This document shows positions 27,085 through 45,635 of a DNA stretch of 45,635 nt, piece after piece. Source of the stretch: Cylindrodendrum hubeiense (lineage: Eukaryota > Ascomycota > Sordariomycetes > Hypocreales > Nectriaceae); the NCBI GenBank assembly GCA_014621425.1, contig JAANBB010000336.1, forward strand, positions 1 through 45,635, written 5' to 3'. The notes below the pieces were generated by a model. It ran no database searches. It had not been told where the DNA came from and was given only the letters and a program-made list of their open reading frames with translations. Each line of letters opens with the position of its first letter. Positions within the stretch are counted from its first letter, which is position 1. The position numbers and the translations under genes are program-made.

Positions 27085-27110
27085 CTAACGTGCATGATAA
27101 GCGAGTGAGA
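27085..27110 (+). repeat. Left terminal inverted repeat of the pogo-like element
   Basis: 26 bases starting with CTA, perfectly complementary to 28925-28950. The element proper starts after the TA. Confidence 0.92.
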
Positions 27111-28949
27111 TACCCAACCACAATTACGCGACTACCCATATTCAAATTGACTTTCCTCCACCCACAATAATGAGGTCACCTAATAAAGAAAGTGGTATGC
27201 TCTTAGCCATCCAAGCTATTCAAAACGTCCCAAGTCTAAGCGCCCGGGCTGCCGCAAAGATCTACACAGTCAGTATAGCAACGTTAAGTCGCCAACTTAA
27301 TGGGACACCATCCCGACGCGATCCCATACCCAAATTGTTTAAACTTATAGATCTAGAGGTGAAAACAATTGTTGAGTATGCCCTTGACCTAGATTTACAA
27401 TCATTTCCTCCCCGGCTTTGCGATGTGGAAGATATAACTGATTGATTGCTTGCTGACCGCGACGCGCTTCCAGTCGGGAAGCGCTGTGCTTCAAACTTCA
27501 TCAGGCGACAACCAGAGCTTAAAACGCGTTTTACGCGTAGATATAACTATCAGAGAGCCCAATACGAAGATCCCAATATTATTTGGGGCTGGTTTCAGCT
27601 TATACAAAATACAATCGCGAAATACAGTATCCAGGAATCAGATATCTATAATTTTAATGAGACTGGGTTTATGATAGGCATTATCTTGACTGGAATAGTC
27701 GTTATAAGCGCCGAACGATGTGGAAGACTAAAAATGGCCCAGCCAGGAGATAGGGAATGGGTTATTGTAATCCAGGGCGTTAATTCGTAAGGGTGGGCGA
27801 TCCCGCCGTTCATATTATTGCGGGCCAATATTATCTTGCGGCCTGGTATGATGAAAGGACCTTACCTCACGATTGGGTCATCGCAACCTCAGATAACGGC
27901 TGGACAACAAACAAGAGAGGCCTAGAATGGATCCAGCACTTCAACAAGCATTCAAAGGCGCGTTCTTCTGGCTCTAATTGCCTTCTTGTGTTGGATGGGC
28001 ATAAAAGCCACCAATCGACCGAATTCGAGCTATGCTGCAGGGAGAATAATATTATTACTCTCTGTATGCCGCTACATTTATCTTATATCCTCCAACCACT
28101 TGATGTTAGCTGCTTTGGGCTGCTCAAGCAGACTTACGGTCGACAAATTAAGACTATAATTAAGACCCGAATTACGCATATTACCAAGGTCGACTTCTTT
28201 TCTGCATTTCAAGCTGCATTGTAAAGCGTACTATTGAGGAAAAAAACATCCGGGGGGGTTTTTGAGGTACAGGACTTGTTCTATACAATCCAGAAAGTGT
28301 GCTTTCTCACTTAGATGTCAAGTTACGGACTCCATCGCCTGCACGTGCAGATTCCGAACTGCCCAACCTTTGGGTTCTGAAGACCCTAAACGACCTAATT
28401 GAAGCTACTTTACAAACTGATCTCATTAAAACTCGAATCAGTCATCACTAGGGGAGCTCTCTGATATCGATTTTAGCTGCTATAGATCAATTTGCGAAGG
28501 GGGCGCGAGGAATAATGCACCAGATGGCATTATTGAGGGCGGAGGTCAACGAGCTTCGGGAGGCAAATGCAACACTTAGCCGGCGGCGCAGGGCAAAAAA
28601 ACCACGTCTCCGGCTTTCAGGGAGCATGACAGTAGCTGAGGGGCAGGAGCTACAAGAACAGAGGGAAATCGCTGATTAGATACAGCAGGAAACGCAGCAA
28701 AGTAATGGTCGGAAGAGGCGGACAGAGATGAGGGAACGGCGATGTGGAAGATGCAGGCAGCCTGGGCATAATGCGCGCCCTTGTCAAGCTGATGTAGATA
28801 TATCTAGAGAAGAGAATAGTGATTGATTTTAATTGATTGAGGTATTGTGGTTGTTTTATTTTGATATTTACTGGTGAAGGTTTGGTTAGGTGTCACTCGT
28901 TTGTCTGTCTCACTCGTTTGTCTGTCTCACTCGCTTATCATGCACGTTA
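27086..28949 (+). mobile_element. pogo/Fot1-like DNA transposon, complete ends, inactive
   Basis: Matching terminal inverted repeats begin ACGTGCATGATAAGCGAGTG and are flanked by TA on both sides (27086-27087 and 28948-28949), the target site duplicated by the Tc1/mariner/pogo superfamily. The body is about 1.86 kb and holds one transposase gene. The right subterminal region carries about two and a half copies of a 17-bp repeat (tcactcgtttgtctgtc). The insertion ends 29 bp before the stop codon of the HeLo-like gene, so it landed in that gene's 3' flank. Confidence 0.92.
27170..28826 (+). pseudogene. pogo/Fot1-type DDE transposase, multiply broken
   Basis: Starts at the ATG at 27170 with a helix-turn-helix region (SARAAAKIYTVSIATLSRQL), then a CENP-B-like DNA-binding half and a DDE domain. 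A TGA at 27443-27445 (from TGG) and a TAA near 27788 interrupt it, a frameshift lies near 27813, and further stops follow 28224. The first catalytic Asp has become Asn (YNFNETGFM, where YNFDETGF is usual). The second (LVLDGHKSH) and third (LQPLDVSCFG) are kept. The C-terminus has a zinc knuckle, CGRCRQPGHNARPC, and ends at 28826. All the damage that can be judged is C-to-T or G-to-A apart from the frameshifts. It cannot move itself. Confidence 0.88.
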
Positions 28950-28950
28950 G
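28925..28950 (-). repeat. Right terminal inverted repeat of the pogo-like element
   Basis: Exact inverted match to 27085-27110. Tandem 17-bp subterminal repeats, possible transposase-binding sites, lie just inside it (about 28890-28930). Confidence 0.92.
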
Positions 28951-28978: not shown

Positions 28979-29846
28979 TTATCCTTTTAACCCTGCTAAA
29001 ATTGCAGCTAAAGCAGTACTAGATGTTGAGCCATTGATAACCAGTGCGTTATTATAGCCATTATTACTTGAGTATGTAATTCTCTGATTAGAACCCACTG
29101 GATAGCCACTGTCGCCCACTGAGCCGTTAATGACGCTAGAGTTATCAAATCCCTCATTTTGGTCATACTTGATGGTAATAGTTGCCGCTGTGCCCGTCCT
29201 TTTGTCGCTCACTGATGCGCCATTTGGTTCACCTACAACTCGAGATTGTCAATCTAGGATTCTCGCCACTTAGTTAGGATGCAAAGGAATACTTGCCTTC
29301 CTCGGCCCGAGCTCTCTGGGCCTCAAGCCTCTCCGCAATAGCTATGCGCTGACCCAGGATTCTCTGCACATTCTGATCGACCCTCTGTATGATAGGCCAT
29401 GTCGCAATCAGGCCACCTCTCATGTCAGATGAGATGCCTACATTTGTTGCCAAGATTCTCGTGTTAAGGTTTGTAGTCGCTCTGTGAAGCTTGTCGAACA
29501 GGTTCTGTAACATCTCCTTATCCTCATCGTTGGTTACCAAGGCATTGATGAATTGCCGTGGCTTGCTTTTGCCCTGGAACTGTCGCAGCTCTTCAAATGA
29601 GCACCGGATATCTTTGCAGATGGAGTGAAGGAACTCGAGCTGGTCTCTGATGCTACTCGTATGCAATTCTTTTTCGTCTCCGATTAGTTCGAGGGTTTGA
29701 AATAGGTTGTCGAGCTGGGCTTGGTAATTGGTGATGACTGCGCCAGCCTGATGGACTCGGGCGAGGCTACGGCGGATGGTCTGGATTACTTCAATCGTTT
29801 GCCCTAGCAATTGGGCTATGCCGACTGCAGCTGCCATCGCCTCCAT
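28979..29846 (-). CDS. HeLo-like-domain protein with two C-terminal prion-like motifs (putative cell-death effector)
   Basis: Exon 1 is 29846-29297 and exon 2 is 29232-28979, joined by a GC-AG intron (donor GCAAGT, branch CCTAACTAA, acceptor TGTAG); product 267 aa. Residues 1-183 are an all-helical domain (MEAMAAAVGIAQLLGQTIEV; KMLQ-type amphipathic helices to residue about 180) of the HeLo-like / N-terminal STAND-associated type found in fungal incompatibility proteins. Residues 206-224 (YDQNEGFDNSSVINGSVGD) and 237-255 (YSSNNGYNNALVINGSTSS) are two copies of one motif, 31 residues apart. A third copy opens the NLR remnant encoded divergently at 30315. By analogy with HET-S/NWD2 the motifs would form an amyloid template that triggers the helical domain at the membrane. 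That role is inference. The frame has no premature stops. Confidence 0.75.
29233..29296 (-). other. GC-AG intron separating HeLo-like domain from amyloid-like motifs
   Basis: 64-nt intron with donor G|GCAAGT, a CCTAACTAAG branch region and acceptor TTGTAG. No GT donor nearby restores the frame; the GTATTC three bases on leads to TGA. Retention of the intron gives a 190-aa protein ending GKYSFAS, without the motifs. Confidence 0.7.
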
Positions 29847-30314
29847 CTTGGCTTTTAAAATTGAATTTGGGATGAATGATTTCGGAACAGGCTTGGAAGG
29901 TAGAGGGTCCCAGTACTATTAAAACGCACGTAACGGTATACCCTGTGTCCTCCCTTCCAATCAGGCTGGAACGCTCGGGTTCATATTCAGCTCCAACCGC
30001 TGCATATTGCCCACGTAGCCAACATGGTGGATGGAGGAGTATCCTCATAATTGGTCCGTCTCAGAAGGATTCCTGCAGGGAGTAAGCTTACTCAAATAAG
30101 TAGTGGACCCCGAATTGCGTGGCCATCCAATAACTGTGTTATCCTCTACAGCCCAGTTCTTTAAATAGGATACGCCGACGCGTCACGGGGTGTCACAGTC
30201 TGCCTTGTCGCCAGCGAATGTCTTGAAAAATAATCCCTCACGATCTTCAGGGCACATCGACTGCGACACGAAAACAGAGCAGCGTTGGCGCTTGGCGAAA
30301 GATACAATCTTAAG
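29847..30314. promoter_or_regulatory. Shared divergent promoter of effector and NLR remnant
   Basis: 468 bp between the two start codons. Composition is normal and RIP is not evident. No specific sites recognised. Confidence 0.4.
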
Positions 30315-30827
30315 ATGGAGCAATCCTTCTATGACAAGCTATCGGCTTCGACATCGTACAGCAACAACTCAGGGTTCGACTCGTCAATCGTCATCAACGG
30401 GCCTGTTGGCAACCTGCATCGACATGTGAGCGACATAGCTGACGGCATGTCATATCACGCCGCTGGCAATATAAATAGGCATTTCCTGGTACCCCATAGA
30501 CTTTCGCCGATATACACTGGAAGGAAACATTTGCTGGAAAAGCTCAAGGATCATCTATGTCCAACTCCTGAGACTGAATCTCCTGAGACATACCGGCAGT
30601 CTGCCCAGAAGGTCGCTGTTGTTCATGGTCTTGGGGGCTCGGGCAAGACACAATTATGCGTTAAACTCTCATACGATGTCCAAGAAAGGTAACATGAAGT
30701 TGGTCTTTGAAGGCTTTGAGTATGCTGATAAGCGTGCAGATTCGGCGGCGTCTTCTGGGTGGACCTATCGTCCCAGATGGCCGCAAGGGATGGGCTCGAA
30801 TCAGTGTTTAGATGTCTCAAGAAATGA
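30315..30827 (+). pseudogene. NLR/STAND receptor, N-terminal remnant with prion-like motif and P-loop
   Basis: Starts at the ATG at 30315. Residues 15-33 (YSNNSGFDSSIVINGPVGN) match the motif of the divergent HeLo-like protein, 12 of 19 identical to its first copy. Then come FLVPHRLSPIYTGRKHLLEKL, typical of the linker before fungal NB-ARC/NACHT domains, and the Walker A loop VVHGLGGSGKTQL. After an intron (30689-30739, GTAACA...TGCAG) the frame continues FGGVFWVDLSSQMAARD, the strand after the P-loop, and stops at TGA 30825-30827. Nothing NLR-like follows; within about 100 bp the sequence becomes AT-rich and leads to the RIP-degraded helicase. The receptor has therefore lost most of its NTPase domain and all of its sensor repeats. 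Confidence 0.75.
30357..30413 (+). other. Prion-like motif R0 of the NLR remnant
   Basis: Encodes YSNNSGFDSSIVINGPVGN. It shares Y, N, G and VING with both effector copies, plus F, D and VG with the first. Confidence 0.75.
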
Positions 30828-31259
30828 CCTCCTGACAATATCCCTATCGCCATTTGGTAACCGGCAATTAAATTTTGGTATGAAATCAAAACACGCTAGC
30901 ATGATATAGGATAGCCGGTAATTAAAATCGAGGATAGTTGCCAATTAGTAGTTCCTCAACCCCAGGTTATAATGAGATTATAAAAACGAGTAAATATATT
31001 AATCTCAATTATCTGATAATATTTATGAACTTTTATTTTACTTTATTATTTTATAGAATAAGTTTTATTAGTTTTTTCTATAACCCTGAAATATTAATAG
31101 TTCTTAGCTAATAGGGATAATCTGTTTAGACTAGCTAATAAGATCAGTATTTACCTTAGTAAGGATATAGTAGCTGTGATTACTGTAATCTGATAATTAT
31201 ATATATAAAAGTAAATATAATTTAGGAGAAGAGTAAAATATCTATTTAATCGCAGAAAG

Positions 31260-34200
31260 TTAAATAAATTATTCTAAATTATTTTATTATTTATTTTTAT
31301 TTAAGATAGAATATTTTTCCTATATCCTAGAACTTTACCTTCTTGGATATCATACTTACAAAACTGGTATTATTTTAAACAGGATTTAGTTATATCTCTA
31401 AGTATTATCCTATAAATTATATAAGGCTAAGATTATAAAGATATAATAATAGATAGCTAAGCTTAATATTATTAAAGATTAAGATAGTATTAGTAATATA
31501 TTATTCCCTACTAATATAAATATACTAATTAATATACTTAGAAAACCTAAGTCTAGAGGATATTAATATATTACTATCCTAGATTATTATTTTATAAACT
31601 CTACCTTAAAGAGAACTTAAGAATATCTTTATTATATTTATTAATAGGATTAAGAGTTAAAAGTCAGTTATTAATTAGTTATATAAGTTAAAGAGGAATA
31701 AACTAATAAACTATAGAAAAATAAGGTCTTTTATTAGCAGGTTTTTGCTAAAGGTCCTCATAATGAATTATTTAAGGTTATTAGAGACCAGGATCTTATT
31801 AGTCTAAAAAATAAGATATAAGAAAATAAGAAAAATATCTAAGGAACTTTAAAAGTATTCTAATCCAAGATAAGATATATTTAAAAGTAAGAGATTAAGT
31901 TTATTAAAGAACAAGGTGATTTCACTTCTCCAAATATATAACTTTACTAGTTAGGAATAACTATCTATCTTAAAGACTTTAATAAAAAGAAAAAATTCTT
32001 ATAAGGACTTATTTTATTATAATATACTATTAATCTAATAAAGGGCAATAATAATACGGAATTATAATATATATATTATACTATTAATCAGGTTATCTCC
32101 TCTATTATTTAGACTATTAATCTAAATATTATCTTATAGAATATACTATTCAAAATCAACTATAAGGAAATTAATAAAAAACAAAATACACTCTTCTATT
32201 TCCAATTCAAAGAAGTAACTAAAAAGAAATATATTATAATATGCTTATAGCTATTTATTTATATTATTTGATATATAGTATTCGAAAATCTAGCTAATTA
32301 ACCACTATTTAAGCTTAGCTAGAGATAAACTGTTACCTATTATATAATAATAGAATATGTAAATAATCTAATAGATATATTAGAATAGAATAGTAATAAT
32401 CTTAAGATATTAAAAATAAGGAAATTATAAATCTTACTTTAAGAGGCTATCTTAGAATTATATATCTCTGTTCTTAATTATTTTATTAAGATAATTAAAT
32501 ATTAAAGTATTCTAGTTAACTTCTTAATAGTTTTAAGTATATATAATAATAAGACATGGAAAACATATAATAACTTTATACTAAAGCTTTCTACTATTAT
32601 AACTATCTCTTATCTTATAATTATTCAGTATTCTATGAACTAATAAGTGAAATCCATTTAACAGAAAATATCACAAAAATAAAACAAAGAAAATATAAAA
32701 GAGAATAGTCCAAGTTATTTTAAACTTATCTCTAAGATAATACATTAATTTATAGTTAGTAATAATTAAGGTTAGGATATCACACTAATCCAGTTTATTA
32801 TATAGCTATGTAATTATAATATAGTAGCTAATAATAATAAGATCACATAAAGTTTTATTAACTAAGATTGGGATAATATTATCTATAAGGGCTTTTATCT
32901 TAATATCCTTAGAATCTAGTTAATATTTTAAGCTATTATATAATAAGGGGAAATACTATTCTATATAAAGCTACTTTTCTATAGGAAATTTAAAGATCAG
33001 TTACCTATTAAACTTGAGTTACCTATAATCCTATAAGATACTCTTATTAATAATACTATAGATATTACTATTAGTTATTTATTTATGGAGAGTCTCTTCT
33101 AGCTAGATCTAACAAGTAAAAGATAGCTTTTTTAGAAAATGTGAAAAGATAAAAAGCTCTGGGGATAATAGATATAATCTTACCTAGGGGATAATATTAT
33201 ACTCTATAAGAAAGCTATAGTCCAATTTAATATAAATATAAAAGAATTTCTTGAGATTCTCTTATTTATTATTTATCTTAATAGAGGACAGTTAGTATAA
33301 TCCCTTAAGTTTCTTACCTTATAATATTAGAATACAGTTAATAGTAGAATATAGAATATCCTATTAGATTGTAGTTTATTAATACTTATTACTAGTTATT
33401 ATAAAGGGTTCTCTAAGATAGAATATCTAAAGATTATCTATTGATTTCTCTCTCAAGAAGTTAACATCCTATTAATCTATTATCTTTAGCTTATTTTATC
33501 CTATTAGGAAAAAGCCCAAGCTAATACCTAGAATATTAATAAGTTTAATGCCAATCTCTAAATAACAGAGAAAATACTAGATAAACTGATTAATCTTAGA
33601 GAAGTTAGAGAGAGTGAGACTAGAGAGAGTAAAGGTCTATTACTAGAAACTATACAAAAGGTATATAAGCTAGGCCCTAAGCCACATTAAACATTAATTT
33701 AAATAACCCATATTCTACGAAAAATAAGTTAACCTAACTATAAGAAAGGCTTTACAATTAGCAGCTAGAGACATCTTATTATTATATTTACCTAACACTA
33801 TTTCCAGAATACAAATACAACACATTTAGCTCTTATCAGAGAGGTAAATAAGAGCTAAGAAAGTGATAATAAGGATAAGGATAATAAAGATAGCCCATAA
33901 AATATCCAAGCTAGATATAGATCCTTAATTACAGGCTTAGTCTATAGGTAATTACTTATAGAAGGATACTTCAAGACAAATAAACACTATATTAATTTTC
34001 AATTTATTAGCTAAGAATAGTACTGACTCCTTAAATTCCTATTAACTATCTAAGGATTTGGGAATATACTCAAGCTAGAATATAAATAAAAGAATCTATT
34101 ATTACACTATAAAACTATATAAGAACTCTAACTTAGATAATAGAAAATCTTATAGTAAATTAATATTAATTATAAGCTATACCACTTATATAATAACCAG

Positions 34201-35790
34201 ATCCACTTCCAAGACAAATAGCAAATAACAGTAGAGTTAATTATAATAAATATAAGTCTAATAATAGCAATAATGGGGACTGGTATTAGAAAAAGTCTCT
34301 ATTTTATATTACTAACTGCTAGCTATCTTAAAGGGGTTACAATAATTATTATACTGCTAATATCTCTTTAAGGTAACATACTTTATCACTATTAGAAATT
34401 GAACATCTCCTATACTAAATAGAAGAGTAATAAGACTCTAGGGAATATCTTAATTATTTTTATAACACCAGAGTTAGTAATAATAAAGTATTTCTAAGAT
34501 TATATTAAGTTATTATAGAGTATAGTATAATTAGATCAATTTGTGATTAATAAAGATTATACTATCCTCGAGGATATAAGAACATTTTAACCGAAATTAT
34601 AAGAACTTAGAAGCTTAGCACTAATTGAAGTGTAAATAATCTATCTTATTATTACACTCCTACCTATTTAAGAGGATATACTCTTTAATCTTATTAATAT
34701 AAGGTAAGAGGATATTATTATAATCTAGATAAATACTATATATATAAATATTATATATAATATTCAGTTAATTCTCATAATAAATACTCGAGAAATTACA
34801 ATAGTAATAACCTTAGTAGTAAGAGAACTTCTCAATTAAAAGCTATAAGAATATCCATGACCTACTAAGATTATTATATATTACTAATAGGTAGAGATTA
34901 TAGAAACTCTAGTAGAGGAATTAAATTATAATACCTATTATTAAGAGGTTAATATAAAAGATAATAAAGTAGAGAGATTATAAGCCTAGATAAATAGATT
35001 AAAATAAGATTAATATAATAATAGTAGAGTGATTATAATAATAAATATTTTTAGTCTTAGTATTAATATTCCTAATATCTAACTTATTTTATATATTAAG
35101 ATATTATTTTAAATAGCTAATTATACACAATAAAGTAAATGAGCTAGTTAAGATAATTTGTAGAGTGAGACTATTATCCTCTATATAGATACTAAAAAGA
35201 ATATATAGAGGATATAATATTTAATTGGGAAAAGTATAATTATTAATAATTATATTAATAGACGAGTTTATTACCGTATAGTTCTAGATTCTATTATAGA
35301 TAGACAGACAGATTAAGAGAACTATAAGAAAGGGGAGGAGCTATATAATATCTATTAAGCCTATAATAAAGTCATTATCTTAGAAGATATAAATATCTCT
35401 GAAGATAAGGAAGAGATAGATATATAAGTATAAGAGTTAATAGTATAGACAGCTAAAGATCAAATAATCACTAATAATCTAAAAGAATAAGAAAAGTTTA
35501 AGGAATTTAAGTAGAGACTAAAAAAGTAAGATAATAATAATTATATATTTTATTAGTCCAGGGGTATTAAGGATCAAGCTCACTCTAATATTTAGTATAC
35601 TAATATTATTAAGATAAATAAGTAGAGGAAGAATACATTCAGTTTTACTATTTAGATAGATAGATTTCTATAGCAGAATAGAATAATAGAGGACTTTATA
35701 TATTATATAGGCTATTTAATACTATAAGAACTATATAATATATAAAAGAAAGATATAATAAAGGGTAAGTAATAAAAGGTATATAGTTAA
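31260..35790 (+). pseudogene. Telomere-linked RecQ-type helicase (TLH), RIP-destroyed
   Basis: A single frame (codons starting at positions of the form 3n+1) can be followed from about 31260 to about 35790 despite well over a hundred stops, nearly all explained by CAG/CAA/CGA or TGG mutation. Helicase motifs are visible in that frame. Walker A is GTGIRKS at 34276-34296 (from GTGAGKS). The DExH box reads INKDYT at 34546-34563. Motif III reads LIITLLP at 34645-34665 (from LTATLPP). Motif VI at 35128-35157 reads Q*SK*AS*DN, a perfect transition-only derivative of QQSGRAGRDN. N-terminal to this are segments typical of TLH proteins (SYYKGFSKIEYLKIIY; IYKGFYLNILRIQ) and a possible zinc-finger region near 31350. 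After the helicase comes a Cys-rich stretch (ELYNIY from ELCDIC). TLH genes sit next to telomeres in many fungi and are multicopy, which makes them RIP targets. Confidence 0.85.
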
Positions 35791-36114
35791 AGATATTAAT
35801 ATAAGGGGATAATAATATTTATAATTACTTATATAGAGACCTATATATCTAATAATATTAATTTACTTTATCAGAGGCTTAGGTTTAGAGGGATATATAG
35901 GGATAATATATCTATAAAAGAGAATTATAAGCAAGTATAAAGATAGATGGGTAAGAGGGTTCTTTGGGCTAGAGTGGATATATTAAATATATATTAAGTA
36001 TTTATATGTATAGCTAAGCTAGAAGATTAAGAGAATAGATTATTATATATATATATATTATATAAGAAAAAAGAAGAAAAGATAATTATAAATTTAATAT
36101 TTAATAATTAATAT
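35791..36114. other. AT-rich spacer after the helicase
   Basis: RIP-like composition with an (AT)n run near 36045. No gene or repeat family recognised; it may still contain the end of the TLH gene. Confidence 0.35.
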
Positions 36115-36650
36115 ATTATTATATAGAGAAAAAATATTATTATATTATCTATAGAAGATAAAGATATTATTATTATATTTTCTCTAAGATATAAAAATAC
36201 TACTATTGTATTATCTCCGAGAAATAAAAATACTATTATTATATTATCTCTGGGAGATAAAGATACTATTATTATATTATCTCTAAGATATAAAAATACT
36301 ATTACTATATTATCTTTAAGAGATAAAGATACTATTACTATATCACTTCTAGGATATAAAAATGCTACTATTATATTATCTCTGGGAAATAAAGATACTG
36401 TTACTATTATTATATTATCTCTAAGATATAAAAATACTACTATTATATTATCTCTAAGATATAAAAATACTATTATTACTACATTATATCTGGGATATAA
36501 AAATGCTATTACTATATTATCTCTGGGAGATAAAAATGTTATTGCTATATTATCTCTGAGATATAAAAATACTACTATTATATTATCTCTAGGATATAAA
36601 AATACTACTACTATATTATCTCTGGGAAATAAAGATTTATTCTCTAAAAA
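36115..36650. repeat. 33-bp minisatellite, about 16 copies
   Basis: Tandem units like tattatctctgggagataa followed by agatactattatta, each with an internal inverted repeat TTATCTC...GAGATAA. AT-rich, with transition-type differences between units. Confidence 0.85.
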
Positions 36651-36654
36651 TAAA

Positions 36655-36875
36655 GATTATATTAAAATATTATATCCTAATATTATAAACAATTTAGAAT
36701 TTTATATACTTATATTATAAATAACTTAGGACTTTATATCCTAATATTATAAATAATTTAAGATTTTATATATTAATATTATAAAGAATTTAGGATTTTA
36801 TATACTAATATTATAAATAATTTAGGACTTTATATACTAATACCCTAAATAATTTAGGACTTTAAATCCTAAATA
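36655..36875. repeat. Short tandem array of about 40-bp AT-rich units
   Basis: About five imperfect units around 'actaatattataaataatt' plus 'taggactttat', directly after the 33-bp array. Confidence 0.75.
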
Positions 36876-37080
36876 ACTCTAAGTATATAATCCTTATATC
36901 TAATCTTACACTTCCAATCTACTAGCCTTCTCCATTCACCCCATAAACTTAAGAGAACTGTAAAAAGCAATATTAAGACTATACTAGACATTTCCAATCT
37001 TCTATCTCCAGCCTACTAAGATTATCCTCCCTTTCTCATTCTATTACCACTATAATATCTTTATTATAGTACTATTCCTA

Positions 37081-37081
<1 letters not shown>

Positions 37082-37112
<31 letters not shown>

Positions 37113-37113
37113 C
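37082..37113. repeat. (ATT)n microsatellite
   Basis: About ten uninterrupted TTA/ATT triplets. Confidence 0.9.
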
Positions 37114-37448
37114 ATTTTAGCATATTCTGAGTATCACATTAAAAATTATAATAAGTTTAGCTTAAACTTAAGATCCGGTTCATGCCCTAAAAGACTGGTT
37201 ATATCTAAGAGGTAGTTAGGTCTGCCAAGACTATATATTTTCGAGCACTTTATTATCAGTTCTTCCATAGAAGATCTACTCTATTCATACTTAAAGCTTA
37301 TCTACCTGTACTTCCTGACTTTAAGCTATAATAAGGCCTAACTTCTCCCACCCTTACATAACCTTAAAAGAACTATCACAAACAATATTAAGAATGCCCT
37401 GGATACTTCCATTCCTATATTTCTAGGCCTGGAAAGTAATATTATAAG

Positions 37449-37795
37449 CTGACCTGTTATTTATCTCTTCTAATACTTAAACTCTTGGATTTTCTTGAGC
37501 CAGTCTATATCAAAGCTAACCTATTATTTATCTTTTCTAATACTTGAACTCTTGGATTTTCCTGAATTAGTCTATGTCAGAGCTGACCTATTATTTGTCT
37601 TTTCTAATACTTGAACTCTTAGATTTTCTTAAACCAGTCTGTGTTAGAACTAACCTATTATTTATCTTTTCCAATACTTAAACTCTTGGATTTTCTTAAG
37701 CCAGTCTGTATTAGAGCTGACCTATTATTTATCTCTTCTAATACTTAAACTCTTGGATTTTCTTAAACTAGTCTATATTAAAACTAACCTATCTT
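37449..37795. repeat. 66-67-bp tandem repeat, about five copies
   Basis: Units begin gctgacctattatttatct and contain aactcttggattttctt and a ccagtct motif near the end. Copies differ mainly by transitions. Confidence 0.88.
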
Positions 37796-37999
37796 TACTC
37801 TCTTCTATCTAACTTTCAGTTAATATAAGGTTTAGCTCTCTTATATTCTAGATAATTATAGCTAATATAAGATAGTATTATATAACTTTAGGTATTACTA
37901 AGAAATCTATAATATTATAGGATTATTATTAATATTTAATCTAATAAGAGAGTAGACCTTAAATTAAAATAGGTTAGAGAATAAGATTATTATAATAGT

Positions 38000-38515
38000 T
38001 AGTTAATTAATCTAGTATTTACTTAGTAATTTACTTAACAGTTTAATTAGTAACTCACTTAGTAATTTACTTAATAATCTATTTAATAGTTTACTCAATG
38101 ACTTACTCTATAAATTAGTTAATAACCTATTTAATAATTTACTTAGTAAATCCCTTAGTAATTTACCTAATAACTCACTTAATAATTTACTTAGTAACTT
38201 ATTTAGTAATTTACTCAGTAACTCATTTAGTAGTTTACTTAGTGACCTATTCAGTAATTTACTTAGTAACTCACTTAGTATATTAATTAGTAACTTACTT
38301 AATAATTTACTTAGTGATCTATTTAGTGATTTACTTAATAACACACTTAGTAATTTACTTAGTAACACACTTAATAATTTACTTAATAACACACTCAGTA
38401 ATTTACTTAGTAATCTATTCAGTTATTTACTTAATAACACACTCAGTAATTTATTTAGTAACCTATTTAATAATTTATTCAATAATCTATTTAGTAATTT
38501 ATAAGGTAGTTTACT
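38000..38515. repeat. 12-bp near-palindromic minisatellite, about 40 copies
   Basis: Units of the form TTACTYAGTAAY. Each unit is almost its own reverse complement (TTACT.AGTAA). Because 12 is a multiple of 3, both strands stay open and give Leu-Leu-Ser-Lys-like or Ile-Tyr-Leu-Val-like repeats; I do not regard these as genes. Confidence 0.9.
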
Positions 38516-38529
38516 TAAAGTAGTAAGTA

Positions 38530-39560
38530 TAGGTCAAATACAGAGAGATATATAAGAAAATCCTCTTATATATAACTACAGTTATAGTTCCTTCTACAAA
38601 CATCTTTAAGAATATCCTTATAGTTATAATAAACCTATATTAATACAAATTAATATATTACTTAGATTATATCTTACAATACTAACTAAAACTCTAATAA
38701 GTAAGCTATTAAGCTCATAAACTAAATCACTATATAGCTAAGATAGAAGAAAAAAAAAAAAGATAAGAGAAATATATAAGAAAATCCTCCCACATATAAT
38801 CACAGTTATAATTATTTTTATAGACATTTTTATAAATATCCTCATAATTATAATAAACCTATATTAACACAAATTAATATACCACTCAGGTTATATCCTA
38901 TAATACTAGCTAAAATTCAAGTAAGTAAGCTATTAAGCTTACAAACCGAGTTACTATATAGTCAAGCTAGAAGAGGTAAAGGAAAAGATAAGAGAGATAT
39001 AAGAGATAATATCCAAGGTAATAAGAAGGGAAAGTAAACTAAAAATAATTAATAGATATAATATTTATTAAAATCCTTTCCTATATATAATTATAATTAT
39101 AATTCCTTTTATAAATATTCTTATAAATATCCTTATAATTATAATAAACCTATATTAATATAAATTAATATACCATTCAGATTACATCCTATAATACTAG
39201 CTAAAACCCAAGTAAATAAGAGTAACCATAATTAGTATAGGGTAACCTCTATTAAACCAGTTCAGGATAGCCTATATTAGACTAGTTCAGGATAGCCTTA
39301 TTAGAGTAGTGAGTACAGGTCAAATACAGAGAGATATATAAGAAAATCCTCCTATATATAACCATAATTATAATTCCTTCTATAAACATCCTTATAAATA
39401 TCCTTATAATTATAATAAACCCATATTAACATAAATTAACATATTACTTAGATTATATCTTATAATATTAGCTAAAATCTAAGTAAGTAAGTTATTAAGC
39501 TCACTTACTAAGTCACTATATAGTTAAATTAAAAAAAGTAGTAGAAAAGATAAGAGAAAT
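38530..39560. repeat. Four diverged copies of a 220-300-bp subtelomeric repeat
   Basis: Copies start near 38540, 38765, 39062 and 39330. They share gagagatatataagaaaatc, atccttataattataataaa and a closing segment around 'aagtaagctattaagctc'. Differences are mostly transitions. Confidence 0.8.
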
Positions 39561-39689
39561 ATAAAAGATAATATCCAAGATAATAAGAAAGGGAAATAAC
39601 CTAAAAGTAATTAATAGATATAATACTTATTAAAATCCCTTCTTATTTAATACTAATTAGCTCAAGGATCTTTAGAATAAATCTTTCTA

Positions 39690-40150
39690 GTACTATAACT
39701 TTGTCAGTATAGGATAACCTCTATCAATATAGAATAATCTTATTAATACAGAGTAGCCTCTATCAGACCAGTTTAGGATAGCCTTATCACAGCAGTTCAG
39801 GATAGCCTCATTAATATAGGATAACCTCTGTCAGACCAGTTTAGGATAATTTTATTAATTTAGGGTAATCTTATTAATATAAGGTAACTATAATTAATAT
39901 AGGATAGCCTTTATTAATACAGGATAATCTCTATTAGACTAGTTCAGGCTAACCTTATTAATATAGGATAGCCTCTATCAGACCAGTTTAGGGGAACCTT
40001 ATTAATACAGGATAGTCTCTATTAATACAGGGTAACTATAATTAGTATAGGGTAACCTCTATTAATATAAGATAGTCTCTATTAGACCAGTTTAAGATAT
40101 CCTCTATCAGTATAGGATAGCTTTATTAGTATAGGATAGTCTTACCAGTC
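39690..40150. repeat. 20-21-bp minisatellite array, proximal
   Basis: Irregular units like tagtataggatagcctctat with occasional 'cagaccagttcaggatagcc' variants. It directly precedes block copy A and resembles the larger array before block copy B. Confidence 0.85.
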
Positions 40151-40180
40151 TCTATTACACTAAATAAGACTAAACTTACG

Positions 40181-41760
40181 AAATATATATAAAATGATTT
40201 TATATTTTAATAGTTATAAGTCAATTTTTTTGTTTTCCTATAATTAAGAATTTTATAGAAAATAAAGACTAGCTCTTAAGCTTACTATAATATACAGCAG
40301 GCTAAAAGTCCATTAATTAGTATATAAAGGGATAGGTTAACTTAGATAAATATGATATAATATTAGGCTTTATCTAGACTTACTAAATTATCTAATTCCT
40401 GGCTATTAGGCCTTGGAAGAATAGCTAGGGATACTAGGTAACATTATAACTATATATTACCTTATTAGTATACCTACTCCCTTAGGCCTCTAATAACTCT
40501 ATTAGAGACTTTATACCTAATCTTATAGATATTCACTGTATGTTTACTATCTTAGATAGGTATATTTTATTAAGATAAAATACAATATCTTATATAAGAT
40601 ATCTTTAAATAGGCTCACAGATTCCAGCTTTACTTACAGAGAGTTTATAATAGGCATTGGCCTCTATAAAAGTGATTACTCTGATAATATAGTATATTAA
40701 AGATAACTAGTTATAGGGATTAGTAGGTAATATCTCCAGCTATTACTAGATTAGTTTAATTAATAATAAATTTACTATTTAAGTAATAGAGGGTAACCTT
40801 ATATAGCTAACACTATAATAGTAAATACTATATATAGTATCCCTCTCTTAAAATATATAGAAGTTATACTATCTATAGTGGGTATATTATAGGAAAATAT
40901 ATCTTAAAACTTAGAGGGGGAAAATAGAATATCCTAATAATACTCTTAGCTATTATTTACAGTACTAATTATATTATTTAGGGTATATCTTTATTCTTAT
41001 AGATATTATCTAATAACTTACTATCTTTCTAATATTTTATATTTATAAGTATTAGTGGTTAATCCTAGTATATAATAATTATCTGGTTAATTCTATAATA
41101 GGAATATATTACTATTAGGATTAGGGTATAAGTAAGTATTAACCCTTAGATAAACCTCTTAATAATTCCCTTTCCAAATTATAGGTCTCCTAGATAAATC
41201 TAAATCCCTTTTTAGTATTACTTTTATTCTTCTATAGGACTAAAAGGAAGATATATAATAGGTTAAAATACACTTCTTTCTTAATATAGGGTATAATAAT
41301 AAGTAATAAGCTTGATAGAAGAAAATAGTCTAATAGAATAAGGTGACAAGGTTATATATTATTATAATATATATCTCTATATTTACTAGGAATATAAATA
41401 TCTTATTTATAAAATCTTCTCTAGTTCAGAGTCTTCGGTTTAAAAGTATTAGTATTCTATAATAATTATAACTAAATTAAGATATTCCTAAGAATACTTT
41501 AAGAACTATATTTAGTAGATTTTTATATTTATAAGGGGGGGTTATAAAGGCAAGTTTTATAAAAAGCTATTAGTCAGTGAGTAAAGTATATAATTCCTAA
41601 AGGTTAATAGGATAAGTCTTTTAATAAAAGTGGGATAAACTGGAATTATATTAGTTATAACCTTGAAAGTATATCTTTATAATAAAAGAGAGACTTATCT
41701 TTATTAGAACTCTCACTATACTTATCTAATTTTCAGATAGTATAAAGAGGGTTATATTAT
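40181..41760. repeat. Subtelomeric duplicated block, copy A
   Basis: A direct repeat with copy B (43571-45385). Shared landmarks are aaaatatatataaaa at the start, 'aattaagaattttaygga', 'gtgggtatattatagg', 'cttagagggggaaaatagaa' and 'cagatagtataaagaggg' at the end. Strongly AT-rich and RIP-like. The original coding content, if any, could not be identified. Confidence 0.85.
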
Positions 41761-41879
41761 ATAATTATTATAGTATAATAATATAAATACTAATAAATTA
41801 TAGAATAATTAATATATAGGAAATTAATATTAAAAGATATAAACTATACTAAAAAGTAAAGGTAAATAAGATAAATATA

Positions 41880-43555
41880 TAAATAGCTTTAGTTATTTAA
41901 GATTAGCTATAATTAATAAAGATTAGTTTTAGTTATTATAGGATAGCTTCACTTAGTACAGGATAACTATAATTAATAACCTCAGGATCTATAATATAAC
42001 TTCAATTAGTATAGGATAGCCTCAATTATTATAAGATAGCTTTAGTTAACATAAAGTAATTATAAGATAACCTAAGTTATTATAATATAATTAGTTAATA
42101 TAGGGTAGTTATAGGATAATTATAGGATAGTCTTAATTACTATAACATAACTTCGATTAGTATAGGATAGCTATAAGATAATCTTAGTTATTATAGTATA
42201 GTTAACTAGTATAGGATAATTACAGGATAACCTCTATTACTATATTATAACTTCAGTTAGCACAGGGTAACTACAGTTAATACAGGCTAGCTTTAGTTAT
42301 TATATTATAGTTAGCTAGTATAGGATAGCTATAGGGTAATCTCTGTTAGTATAGTGTAATTAGCTAGCATAGATTATCTATAGAATAACCTCTATTACTA
42401 TAATATAACTTCAGTTAGTATAAGATAATTATAATTAATACAAACTAGCCTTAGTTATTATAGTATAGTTAGCTAGTATAGGGTAACCTCTATTATTATA
42501 GTGTAATTTCAGTTAGCACAGAGTAATTATAGGATAGTCTCTGTTATTATAATATAGCTTTAATTAGTATAGGGTAATCTCAGTTCTCTAACTCTAGCTT
42601 TACTTAGTATAGGGTAACTATAGTTAATAACCTTAAAGTCTATAATATAACTTTAATTAGTACAGAATAACCTTAATTATTGTAAAATAGCTTTAGTTAA
42701 CATAAAATAACTATAAGATAGCCTGAGTTATTATAATATAATCAGTTAGTATAGAGTAATTATAAGATAGCTATAGGATAGTCTCAATTATTATAATAAA
42801 GCTTCAGTCAGTATAGGGTAATTATAAGATAGCCTCTATTATTATAGTGTAACTTCAGTTAGTATAGGATAGTCTCTATTATTATAGTGTAGCTTTAGTT
42901 AGTATAGGATAACTGTAGGATAGCTTCTATTACTATAATATAACTTTAGTTAGTATAGGGTAATCTTAATTATCTAATTATAGCTTTAATTAGTATAGGA
43001 TAACTACAATTAATACAGGCTAGACTTAATTACTATAGTATAATTAGTTAATGTAATATAACTATAAGGTAATTTCAGTTATTATAATATAGCTTTAGTT
43101 AGCATAGAGTAGTCTTAGTTATCTAACTCTAGCTTTAATTAGTATAGGGTAACTACAGTTAGTATAGGTTAACCTTAGTTACTATAGGGTAACCTCAGTT
43201 ATTATAGTACACTTTCTATTATTAAAGGATAACTTAAATAACTATAGGATAGTTTCAGTTAACACAGGGTAATTATAATAGAATCCCAGTTAGTATAATT
43301 TAAATTCAAATTATAAGATAACTTTAATTAGCTAAGGTTAGCTATTATTAATACAGGGTAACCTCAGTTATTATAGGATAGCTTTAGTTAGTATAGGATA
43401 GCTATAGTCAATATAAGATAATTATAGTTAATACAGGATAGCTTCTATTAGTATAGGATAGCTATAATTAATATAGGGTAACTTCTATTAGCACAGGGTA
43501 GCTATAATTAGTATAGGATAGCCTTAGTTAATATAGAATAAGTCTGCTATAGACC
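41880..43555. repeat. 20-21-bp minisatellite array, distal (about 1.7 kb)
   Basis: About 80 imperfect units of the type 'ttagtataggatagctatag'. Higher-order variants alternate 'ggatagct', 'gggtaacc' and 'gtgtaact'. Same unit as the array at 39690. Confidence 0.88.
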
Positions 43556-43570
43556 TTTTTATTAAGCTTA

Positions 43571-45385
43571 TAAAATATATATAAAACAATTTTGTGTTTT
43601 AATAGCTATAAGTTAATTTTTTTATTTTCTTATAATTAAGAATTTTACGGAAAATAAAAACTAGCCCTTAAATCTGTCCTGGTATGTGGTAGGCTAAAAG
43701 TCTATTAGTAAGTATATAAGAGGGGGATAAAAAAGCTAAGTTAGTAATAACTAGGCTTTAGAGTCCTAGTAACTCTCTAAGTGACCTTATAAGGTATTGT
43801 GATTTCTAAAAGATACCTAATTTTTTAGATTCCCACTATATGGCCTTCTAAATTAGCTTATAGGTTCTGGCTTCACTTATAGGGGATTTATAGTAAGTAT
43901 TAACCTCTACAAAAGTGGCTGCTCTAGTAATATAATATACTGGAGATAACTGGCTATAGGGACTAGTAGCTTAGAGCTCTAGCTATTACCAGATTAGCTT
44001 AATTAATAACTATACTTACTAATTAGGTAATAGGGGGTAACCTTTTATAGTTAATACCATAATAATAAATACTATAGATAGTGTTCCCCTTTTAGGATAT
44101 AGAAACTATACTATTTATAGTGGGTATAGTATAGGGAATATTTCCTTAAAAACTTAGAGGGGGAAAGTAGAATATCCTAATAGTATTATTAATTACTATT
44201 TATAATATAAAGTATATTATTTAGGGTATATCTTTATTCTTATAGGTATTATTTAATAACTTATCTTTTCTCTAATATAATATATTTATATATATTAATA
44301 GTTAACCCTAGTATATAATAATTATCTAGTTAATTTTATAGTAAGAATATATTTATATTAAGATTAAGAAGTGAGTGAGGGATAACTAGAGATTATAATT
44401 TAGACTTTTAGTTACTCTCTTAGTAATCTTCCCTTCTAAATTATAGGTTTCCTAAACAAGTCTAAAACCCTTTCTAGTATTATTCTTTATTTTCTAGAAC
44501 TAAAAGAGAGTATACTATAAGTAAAGATCTTTTAGATATTATAAACTGTTTTTATATAATCACATTTCTATTATATAAGTGAGTAAAAAAATAATAGAGT
44601 TATTTAGGGGTAGAAATATATTAAGATTGAGTTCTATAATACTATTCTGATAATTCCTTAGATAAAGTTTACTATTAAAGAACTCTTTACTTATTATACT
44701 ATTAGTAGTGAAAGTGTCTATTAGATTTGATCTTATTATGTATAGCTTACTATTTAAGATTAGAGATCTAGTCCTATTATCTAGTTTTATATAGTTTAAG
44801 GTATTTTATAAAGGACTCAAGTATTATAATAACCCTTTAAGTAGTTTAATTATTAGGAAGATTAATTAGGGATATAACTAGTTCTTAGACTAATTAGTCC
44901 TATTTAAGGAAGTCAGTAATTGTGTATTCTTATAGGGTTAATTAGGTATTGTGAAAGTAAACTAATAGAGTTAGATAATAGAATTATAAATTATTATAGT
45001 ATATATTTTTATATTCCCTGAAAACGTGAGTATCTTATCTATAAAGTCTTCTATAACTAAGAGTTTTTAGCTTGAAAGTGCTAGTAGGCTATAATATCTA
45101 TAATCAAGCTAATCTTTATTATTAGAATACTTAAAAAACTGTGTTTAGTAGACCCTTATTTTTATAAGGGGAGATTATAAAGGTAAGCTCTACTAGAAAT
45201 AATTAGCTAGTAGGTAATATATATAAATCCTAAAGGTTATTAGGATAGGTCTTTTAATAAAAGTGAGATAAATTAGAACTATATTAGTTATAACCTTAAA
45301 AGTATATCTTTATAATAAAAAAGAGACTTATTTTTACTGGAACTCTTACTATACTTACCTAATCTTCAGATAGTATAGAGGGGGC
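43571..45385. repeat. Subtelomeric duplicated block, copy B
   Basis: Second copy of the block at 40181-41760. It is about 230 bp longer overall; the extra sequence seems to lie around 44520-44960. It is the telomere-proximal copy. Confidence 0.85.
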
Positions 45386-45439
45386 TTTAGATCTAATATT
45401 ATTATAAAATAAGATAAGAGTAATATATTATAGAAATTT

Positions 45440-45563
45440 CAAAATTAAAGACTTATTTATAGAAGGTTAAGAATTATTTATAGAAAGTAAAAAGATCTAT
45501 ATAGAGGGTTAAGAATTATTTCTAGAGGGTTAAGAATTATATTCAGAGGGTTAAGAATTTGTC
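45440..45563. repeat. Degenerate telomere-adjacent repeats
   Basis: Five loose copies of 'agagggttaagaattattt' with spacing of about 20-40 bp. Each contains GGGTTA, and they may be decayed telomeric DNA. Confidence 0.75.
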
Positions 45564-45635
45564 TTAGGGTTAGGGTTAGGGTTAGGGTTAGGGTTAGGGT
45601 TAGGGTTAGGGTTAGGGTTAGGGTTAGGGTTAGGG
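45564..45635 (+). repeat. Telomere, TTAGGG x 12
   Basis: Twelve exact TTAGGG units run to the end of the window, G-rich strand 5' to 3' outward. This is the right chromosome end. Confidence 0.98.

What the first reader, a model, noticed from the sequence alone, without database searches (positions are those of the whole stretch)
28979..30827. Candidate amyloid-signalling pair: HeLo-like effector and divergent NLR sharing a 19-residue motif
The effector carries two motif copies at its C-terminus (YDQNEGFDNSSVINGSVGD and YSSNNGYNNALVINGSTSS, 31 residues apart). The adjacent NLR carries one at its extreme N-terminus (YSNNSGFDSSIVINGPVGN). The NLR copy is closer to effector copy 1 (12/19 identical) than the two effector copies are to each other (9/19). 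Copy number, placement, spacing and gene adjacency match HET-S/NWD2 in Podospora, where the NLR motif templates amyloid folding of the effector. The V-x-x-G core is reminiscent of HET-s-related motifs (HRAM), but the Y..N.G(F/Y)(D/N)...VING pattern may define a distinct subclass.
Basis: partly seen in the sequence, partly recalled or inferred. Interest (0 to 1): 0.9.

Follow-up and report, generated by a model that had tools for sequence, protein, structure and literature searches.

The report
Candidate new fungal amyloid-signalling pair
Two neighbouring genes of a fungus share an old, conserved 19-residue motif laid out like the HET-S/NWD2 prion cell-death switch, but the motif fits no published class that could be tested here, and the receptor gene is cut short in this strain.

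Summary
A divergent gene pair encodes an effector with two 19-residue repeats at its C-terminus and an NLR start with one repeat near its N-terminus; 0 of 3000 shuffles reach the similarity. 9 of the 12 residues shared by NLR and effector copy 1 use different codons, so the likeness is old and kept at protein level.

Corrections: (1) the NLR is a 153-aa remnant ending shortly after its P-loop, beside a 15-kb RIP-like AT-rich block; (2) the effector repeats join the protein only through a predicted 64-nt GC-AG intron; (3) the motif fails the printed HRAM rules and PF11558, which HRAMs of the same genome pass; (4) the effector matches no Pfam family; profiles lean to HeLo-like, not HeLo or SesA.

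New: the effector is a divergent relative of an unannotated Nectriaceae family with a conserved tail (typically NNxTFDQALQINGxV ... IENNEARxxSxQxN) that resembles the motif. In this genome two such relatives have no NLR nearby.

Best reading: a HET-S/NWD2-like templating pair using a new motif class, its receptor now lost here. Amyloid formation is untested.

The parts
29297..29846 (-). effector exon 1: helical domain (HeLo-like-related by profile), from ATG
   Evidence: ORF and splice enumeration; one relative at 53% identity over 64% of the query, P0002 of Fusarium decemcellulare; all-helical model, mean pLDDT 67.4; profile link to HeLo-like
29233..29296 (-). predicted 64-nt GC-AG intron (GCAAGT ... 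TTGTAG), phase 1
   Evidence: one of many joins listed, chosen for its signals and length; no transcript evidence; the C112 relative is also annotated with an intron between domain and tail
28979..29232 (-). effector exon 2: tail with R1 and R2, ends at the stop
   Evidence: 46 of 83 residues are N, Q, S, G, Y or T and 11 are charged
29111..29167 (-). motif copy R1 YDQNEGFDNSSVINGSVGD
29018..29074 (-). motif copy R2 YSSNNGYNNALVINGSTSS
30315..30688 (+). NLR remnant exon 1: R0, linker, P-loop
   Evidence: related NLRs
30357..30413 (+). motif copy R0 YSNNSGFDSSIVINGPVGN
30627..30650 (+). P-loop GLGGSGKT
30689..30739 (+). predicted 51-nt GT-AG intron of the NLR
   Evidence: the join gives the GVFWVD stretch seen in relatives
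30740..30827 (+). NLR remnant exon 2, ends in TGA (30825-30827)
   Evidence: tblastn similarity to four NLRs ends at 30794-30824; best downstream match E 5.3
30851..45635 (.). AT-rich block with RIP-like dinucleotide bias to the contig end; no rest of the NLR found in it

Best explanation
The locus is a divergently transcribed effector/NLR pair that works by the logic of HET-S/NWD2, built on a motif outside the fungal classes that could be tested here, and its receptor is truncated in this strain. SHOWN: the shared motif, its copy number and placement; conservation at protein level; failure of the printed HRAM rules; kinship of the effector domain, and more weakly of the tail, with a Nectriaceae family; truncation of the NLR. 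INFERRED: the intact NLR, on ligand binding, oligomerised through its nucleotide-binding domain and brought R0 copies together; these stacked as a beta-arch or beta-solenoid template; the effector's R1-R2 tail folded onto it; the helical domain was thereby set free to attack membranes and kill the cell. In this assembly the receptor step should not work, leaving an effector whose reading frame is intact if the intron is spliced, and an R0-bearing fragment.
For: R0-R1 similarity exceeds all 3000 shuffles. Of 12 residues shared by R0 and R1, 9 use different codons; third positions agree in 6 of 19, positions 1-2 in 28 of 38: not a recent DNA copy, and constrained as protein. The remnant matches four NLRs at E 1.8e-12 to 4.9e-8 (4 of 364 candidates); three of these have their P-loop at residue 251-353, behind a longer N-terminal part, where the window has it at residue 105 behind R0; the fourth (P0003) has it at 93. 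Exchange of an integrated effector domain for a short motif is described in PMC3321046 (passages). Layout and the 12-residue spacer fit known pairs (6-18 residues in 154 of 155 HRAM proteins; PMC4518210, Results part 1); the tail is low in charge (11 of 83). The effector domain aligns with three HeLo-like domains of the genome (hhalign 39.0; 0 of 100 column shuffles as high).
Against: There is no amyloid evidence. Only one pair is known: the NLR N-terminus as query found 1 place in the genome, regex scans found the motif at 0 of 17 NB-ARC loci, the 85 NACHT matches were not scanned, and 0 of 4 related NLRs carry it (read by eye). Two relatives of the effector in this genome have no NLR nearby, so the tail may have another role. 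The one close effector relative has no tail in its annotated model. The intron is unconfirmed. The tail kinship is weak: hhalign probability 13% for the tail and 5.5% for R0, and R2 alone does not resemble the family's second repeat (290 of 500 shuffles as high). Fold searches gave common helical bundles; the AlphaFold model of the family tail is of low confidence (block means 32-55).
Confidence: 0.55

Rival explanations
1. The pair is a divergent HRAM (HET-s-related) system, perhaps near HRAM2-5, whose sequences could not be loaded here.
For: Same layout and spacer length; R0 and R1 end in V-G-[ND], as HRAM repeats tend to; HRAM is the class with two effector repeats (PMC4518210). The best single comparison, R0 with the HRAM of the NLR at C1, is reached by 62 of 500 shuffles.
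Against: Window repeats match 4, 4 and 4 of 9 HET-s consensus positions, as do 3238, 3295 and 3585 of 5000 shuffles; four HRAM repeats of the same genome match 6, 9, 7 and 9. The relaxed pattern (hydrophobic 5, 8, 10, 16, 18; G19; Q allowed at 16 and 18) is absent from effector tail, NLR N-terminus and 13 family tails, present in three of three control proteins. PF11558 finds 4 places in the genome, not this one.
Confidence: 0.12
2. The tail is a non-amyloid interaction or regulatory segment of a Nectriaceae protein family, and the NLR carries a copy that meets the effector by ordinary protein contact.
For: 18 of 23 listed proteins carry the ALQIN core of the tail, several in longer proteins with P/Q-rich ends; the two relatives in this genome have no NLR-type P-loop nearby by regex, and no NB-ARC or NACHT match is listed on their contigs C112 and C35.
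Against: In the window the two-copy tail ends the protein and the single copy takes the place of an effector domain in the NLR, which is the layout of amyloid signalling.
Confidence: 0.25
3. The effector is not expressed with its tail (intron not spliced, or gene broken), and the repeats are a relic beside an NLR relic.
For: Two reading frames that need an unusual GC-AG intron; truncated NLR; a transposon 28 bp behind the effector's stop and RIP-like sequence about 1 kb from its start.
Against: GCAAGT and TTGTAG are good signals with a CTAAC stretch between them; the tail frame is open and its repeats are conserved; the C112 relative also has an intron between domain and tail.
Confidence: 0.08

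Closest known systems
HET-S/NWD2 of Podospora anserina and HRAM pairs (PMC3321046, passages; PMC4518210, Results part 1)
   Same: Adjacent genes, divergent as in Podospora; two repeats at the effector C-terminus, one near the NLR N-terminus; helical effector domain; spacer length in the reported range.
   Different: Motif does not meet the HRAM position rules or PF11558; effector domain does not match HeLo (PF14479); receptor truncated.
PP, sigma, PUASM and GDQN motif pairs (passages of PMC3321046, PMC9815663, PMC12261475)
   Same: Effector and NLR share a short motif; GDQN was likewise put forward from one pair, in a Fusarium oxysporum strain.
   Different: The printed PP, PUASM and GDQN patterns are absent from effector and NLR; no sigma or PP family among the Pfam matches.
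Unannotated Nectriaceae family of P0007 (Cylindrodendrum hubeiense G7Z17_g229) with Fusarium, Ilyonectria and Dactylonectria homologues
   Same: Related helical domain (hhalign E 5.3e-6, probability 86%); tail aligned over 60 columns.
   Different: About 20% identity in the domain; longer P/Q-rich C-terminus in several; no NLR near the C112 copy.
HELLP/PNT1 (HeLo-like PP protein and PP-NB-ARC-TPR receptor; passage of PMC12881547)
   Same: HeLo-like-related effector beside a receptor whose core resembles TPR-type NLRs.
   Different: Motif is not PP/RHIM.

Membership tests
HRAM (HET-s-related amyloid motif) | HET-s consensus: N1, hydrophobic 3, 6, 14, 16, G10, R/K13, G17, N/D18 | tested here: not met
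   4 of 9 in each of three window repeats, at shuffle level; four control repeats of the same genome 6-9 of 9; rule from passages of PMC3321046
HRAM (HET-s-related amyloid motif) | pattern common to five subfamilies: hydrophobic 5, 8, 10, 16, 18 and G19 | tested here: not met
HRAM (HET-s-related amyloid motif) | Pfam PF11558 match | tested here: not met
   not among matches at E up to 10; genome scan 4 places, not the window; but only 38 of 155 HRAM proteins match it (PMC4518210)
PP / PUASM / GDQN motifs | NxGxQxGxN; FxGxGxQxxGxGxF; GDQNxVS core | tested here: not met
   regex on effector and NLR exon 1
sigma motif | sigma profile | tested here: inconclusive
   no sigma family among Pfam matches at E up to 10; published sigma profiles not available
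NLR-effector amyloid-signalling pair | same motif at effector C-terminus and near the N-terminus of an adjacent NLR | tested here: met
NLR-effector amyloid-signalling pair | complete NLR (nucleotide-binding domain plus repeats) | tested here: not met
   153-aa remnant; no convincing NLR similarity downstream
NLR-effector amyloid-signalling pair | pair conserved in related species | tested here: inconclusive
   one close effector relative, F. decemcellulare, without a tail in its model; its DNA is not held
NLR-effector amyloid-signalling pair | peptides form cross-beta fibres and seed each other | not testable with these tools
   needs experiments
HeLo-like (PF17111) | profile match of the effector domain | tested here: inconclusive
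   no Pfam match; hhalign against three own HeLo-like domains: window+family 39.0, 0 of 100 shuffles as high; window+P0002 25.8, 0 of 100; family alone 22.8, 1 of 100
HeLo (PF14479) and SesA (PF17107) | profile match of the effector domain | tested here: not met
   no Pfam match; hhalign 13.8 and 13.0, with 43 and 50 of 100 shuffles as high; remote kinship is not excluded
MLKL/HeLo four-helix fold | structural match to a solved HeLo or MLKL domain | tested here: inconclusive

The most novel reading that the evidence does not exclude
A new class of fungal signalling amyloid ('VING' motif, roughly Y..N.G[FY][DN]...VING) arose from the conserved tail of a Nectriaceae effector family and was captured by an NLR; family members without a neighbouring NLR still answer to unlinked receptors or assemble by themselves.
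Probability: 0.25. Interest if true: 0.78.

Novelty: new variant of a known kind. Interest (0 to 1): 0.6.

Why it matters
Few fungal signalling-motif families are listed in a 2025 paper: HRAM, sigma, PP, PUASM 1-2, and a provisional GDQN (PMC12261475, passages). A further class whose tail can be linked to a family without adjacent NLRs would show how such motifs arise and are taken up by receptors. It would also suggest that pairs can stay hidden where motifs are short and diverged and where an unusual intron leaves the tail out of the gene model. The truncated receptor is a natural case of an effector that lost its trigger.

Tried and rejected
HRAM membership: rejected on three tests with positive controls from the same genome. 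Chance: rejected. Recent duplication or gene conversion of the motif: not favoured, third codon positions are unlike. HeLo and SesA: no profile match. Rest of the NLR in the AT-rich block: tblastn with four NLRs, best downstream E 5.3. Other motif copies in the genome: protein queries found one place each; the family-tail query did not find the window tail, so such searches are weak. PDB by sequence: nothing for the effector, two unrelated weak hits for the motif profile. The rows shown by the fold searches name no HeLo or MLKL chain, which does not exclude the fold. The hhalign column-shuffle controls for HeLo-like vs HeLo, family vs tail and family vs NLR N-terminus did not run, as the script hit its time limit; for the last two the hmmsearch shuffles stand instead. 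Paper searches: Cylindrodendrum hubeiense, 6 papers (listing only); amyloid+NLR+Nectriaceae, 1 unrelated (listing); new amyloid signalling motifs, 16 (listing). Papers seen: PMC4518210 (abstract, Results part 1, legends and tables), PMC9815663 (outline, passages, section 19), PMC3321046, PMC5485727, PMC12261475, PMC12881547 (passages). I found no print of this motif in these, but logos and supplements were not visible.

Full report
WHAT WAS LOOKED AT. The window is the whole contig C264 of a 47.5-Mb fungal assembly. Protein P0007, whose domain part and tail are identical to translations of locus L006 on C112, lies on a contig of the same length as C112 (550,424) and is named G7Z17_g229 of Cylindrodendrum hubeiense. 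I infer that the window is from that species (Nectriaceae).

THE OBSERVATION. Effector copies R1 (29111-29167, -) and R2 (29018-29074, -) and NLR copy R0 (30357-30413, +) are as reported: 12/19, 9/19 and 8/19 identities for R0-R1, R1-R2 and R0-R2. The NLR-effector match (score 64) exceeds all 3000 tail shuffles (maximum 53) and, at full length, all 300; the internal repeat (61) exceeds all 3000 (maximum 54). Of 12 residues shared by R0 and R1, 9 use different codons, and third positions agree in 6 of 19 against 28 of 38 for positions one and two. The likeness is thus not a recent DNA copy; it was kept at protein level in two genes on opposite strands.

GENE MODELS. The effector's helical domain and tail are in different frames. 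Of many possible joins I chose a 64-nt intron with GCAAGT and TTGTAG (29296-29233), which gives 267 residues. The models P0001 (190 aa, window ORF) and P0002 (188 aa, F. decemcellulare) stop before any tail; that P0002 hides a tail behind a missed intron is a guess. The NLR starts at 30315, has a 51-nt intron and stops at 30825 after 153 residues. It matches four proteins at E 1.8e-12 to 4.9e-8 (4 of 364 candidates), all with precomputed Pfam domains that I recall as TPR; one (P0006) also lists NB-ARC PF00931, and P0004 lists PF17111. A linker of the kind [HY]F.[VI]P...[TL]GR precedes the P-loop in all four and in the window. The P-loop lies at residue 105 in the window, 93 in P0003, and 251, 353 and 319 in P0004-P0006. 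tblastn similarity ends between 30794 and 30824; the best downstream match has E 5.3. GC falls from 0.60 (30751-30800) to 0.14 (31001-31050), and from 31 kb to the end TA/AT is 1.15-1.76 and (CA+TG)/(AC+GT) 0.25-0.68, values that I recall as typical of RIP. The receptor is a remnant.

NOT AN HRAM BY THE PRINTED RULES. Rules were taken from passages of PMC3321046 and from PMC4518210 (Results part 1 and legends). The window repeats reach 4 of 9 consensus positions, as 3238, 3295 and 3585 of 5000 shuffles do; four HRAM repeats of the same genome reach 6, 9, 7 and 9. The relaxed pattern is absent from effector tail, NLR N-terminus and 13 family tails and present in three of three control proteins. 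PF11558 finds 4 places in the genome, 2 over cut-off, none in the window. PP, PUASM and GDQN patterns are absent. The controls are HRAM1-like; HRAM2-5, sigma and other published profiles could not be loaded, so 'new class' rests on printed rules.

A FAMILY BEHIND IT. The effector has two weak relatives in its own genome, at C35:276141 (E 0.015) and C112:104773 (E 0.017). The C112 protein has a tail NNRTFDQALQINGMVG ... IENNEARGFSTQIN. A profile of window, P0002 and this protein gave 23 proteins at E up to 1 among 8000 scored candidates, a capped number; E-values of the C112 protein's kin are inflated because it was in the query. 18 of 23 carry the ALQIN core, one is partial (P0027), four have no tail in their models (P0001, P0002, P0011, P0012). 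Those with an organism name belong to Cylindrodendrum, Ilyonectria, Dactylonectria and Fusarium, all Nectriaceae. With the window left out of the profile, the domain aligns at hhalign probability 86%, E 5.3e-6 (0 of 100 column shuffles as high). The tail aligns at E 0.0022 but probability 13%, R0 at E 0.007, probability 5.5%; these are one-against-one E-values. A tail HMM scores the window tail 17.3 bits against a shuffle maximum of 14.8, and the NLR N-terminus 7.8 against 6.2; 0 of 3000 shuffles each reach the observed score, counting as misses the 373 and 718 that the program did not report. Pairwise, R1 and R0 resemble the family's first repeat (0 of 500 shuffles each), R2 resembles it too (7 of 500), but R2 does not resemble the family's second repeat (290 of 500), while R1 and R0 do weakly (11 and 22 of 500). 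So the family link is good for the domain, fair for R0 and R1, and unproven for R2. The family tail is itself a weak two-fold repeat, offset 29-30 (0 to 7 of 2000 shuffles in 13 proteins; registers chosen by eye). No NLR-type P-loop was found by regex in 40 kb around the C112 gene or 20 kb around the C35 gene, and neither contig appears among the 17 NB-ARC and 85 NACHT matches of the genome (in one search, 90 of 128 candidates were scored).

EFFECTOR DOMAIN. No Pfam match of note. hhalign with three HeLo-like domains of the genome scores 39.0 (0 of 100 shuffles as high), window plus P0002 25.8 (0 of 100), the family alone 22.8 (1 of 100); HeLo and SesA are at shuffle level (43 and 50 of 100). 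For scale, HeLo-like vs SesA, remotely related according to PMC4518210, scores 30.9. The model is all-helical, mean pLDDT 67.4; fold searches gave common bundles. The family model's tail is of low confidence.

MECHANISM. Most likely the intact system worked as HET-S/NWD2 does: receptor oligomerisation, nucleation by R0, templated folding of R1-R2, release of a membrane-active helical bundle. Each step after the sequence facts is inference by analogy. In this strain signalling from this receptor should be lost. Rivals are an HRAM variant, a non-amyloid interaction segment, and a relic.

VERDICT. Observation confirmed; interpretation partly supported; a new variant of a known kind.

Noticed in passing
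window 27085-28950: A 1866-bp DNA transposon of pogo/Fot-like kind (DDE_1, E 2.5e-24; 'pogo/Fot' is recalled) with 26-bp perfect terminal inverted repeats and a transposase split over several frames ends 28 bp from the effector's stop codon.
   Followed up: partly
window 30851-45635: About 15 kb of AT-rich sequence (18-28% GC from 31 kb on) with RIP-like ratios and low-complexity ORFs at 36.1-36.7 and 38.0-38.5 kb.
   Followed up: partly
G000 C667:386812, C490:47284, C2:130151, C1:16163: The same genome holds canonical HET-s-type repeats: behind a HeLo domain in an open frame (C667), one copy with a TGA inside (C490), and single repeats near the start of two long open frames (C2, C1).
   Followed up: partly
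P0003 (Lecanora helva), residues about 17-36: The NLR relative with a short N-terminus has another motif-like stretch (ENFRAEGYSQVQIGDRYYYN), possibly a different signalling motif.
   Followed up: no
L005 (C35:276141): A weak relative of the effector domain (E 0.015), followed by an ORF whose end resembles the second repeat of the family tail by eye.
   Followed up: partly
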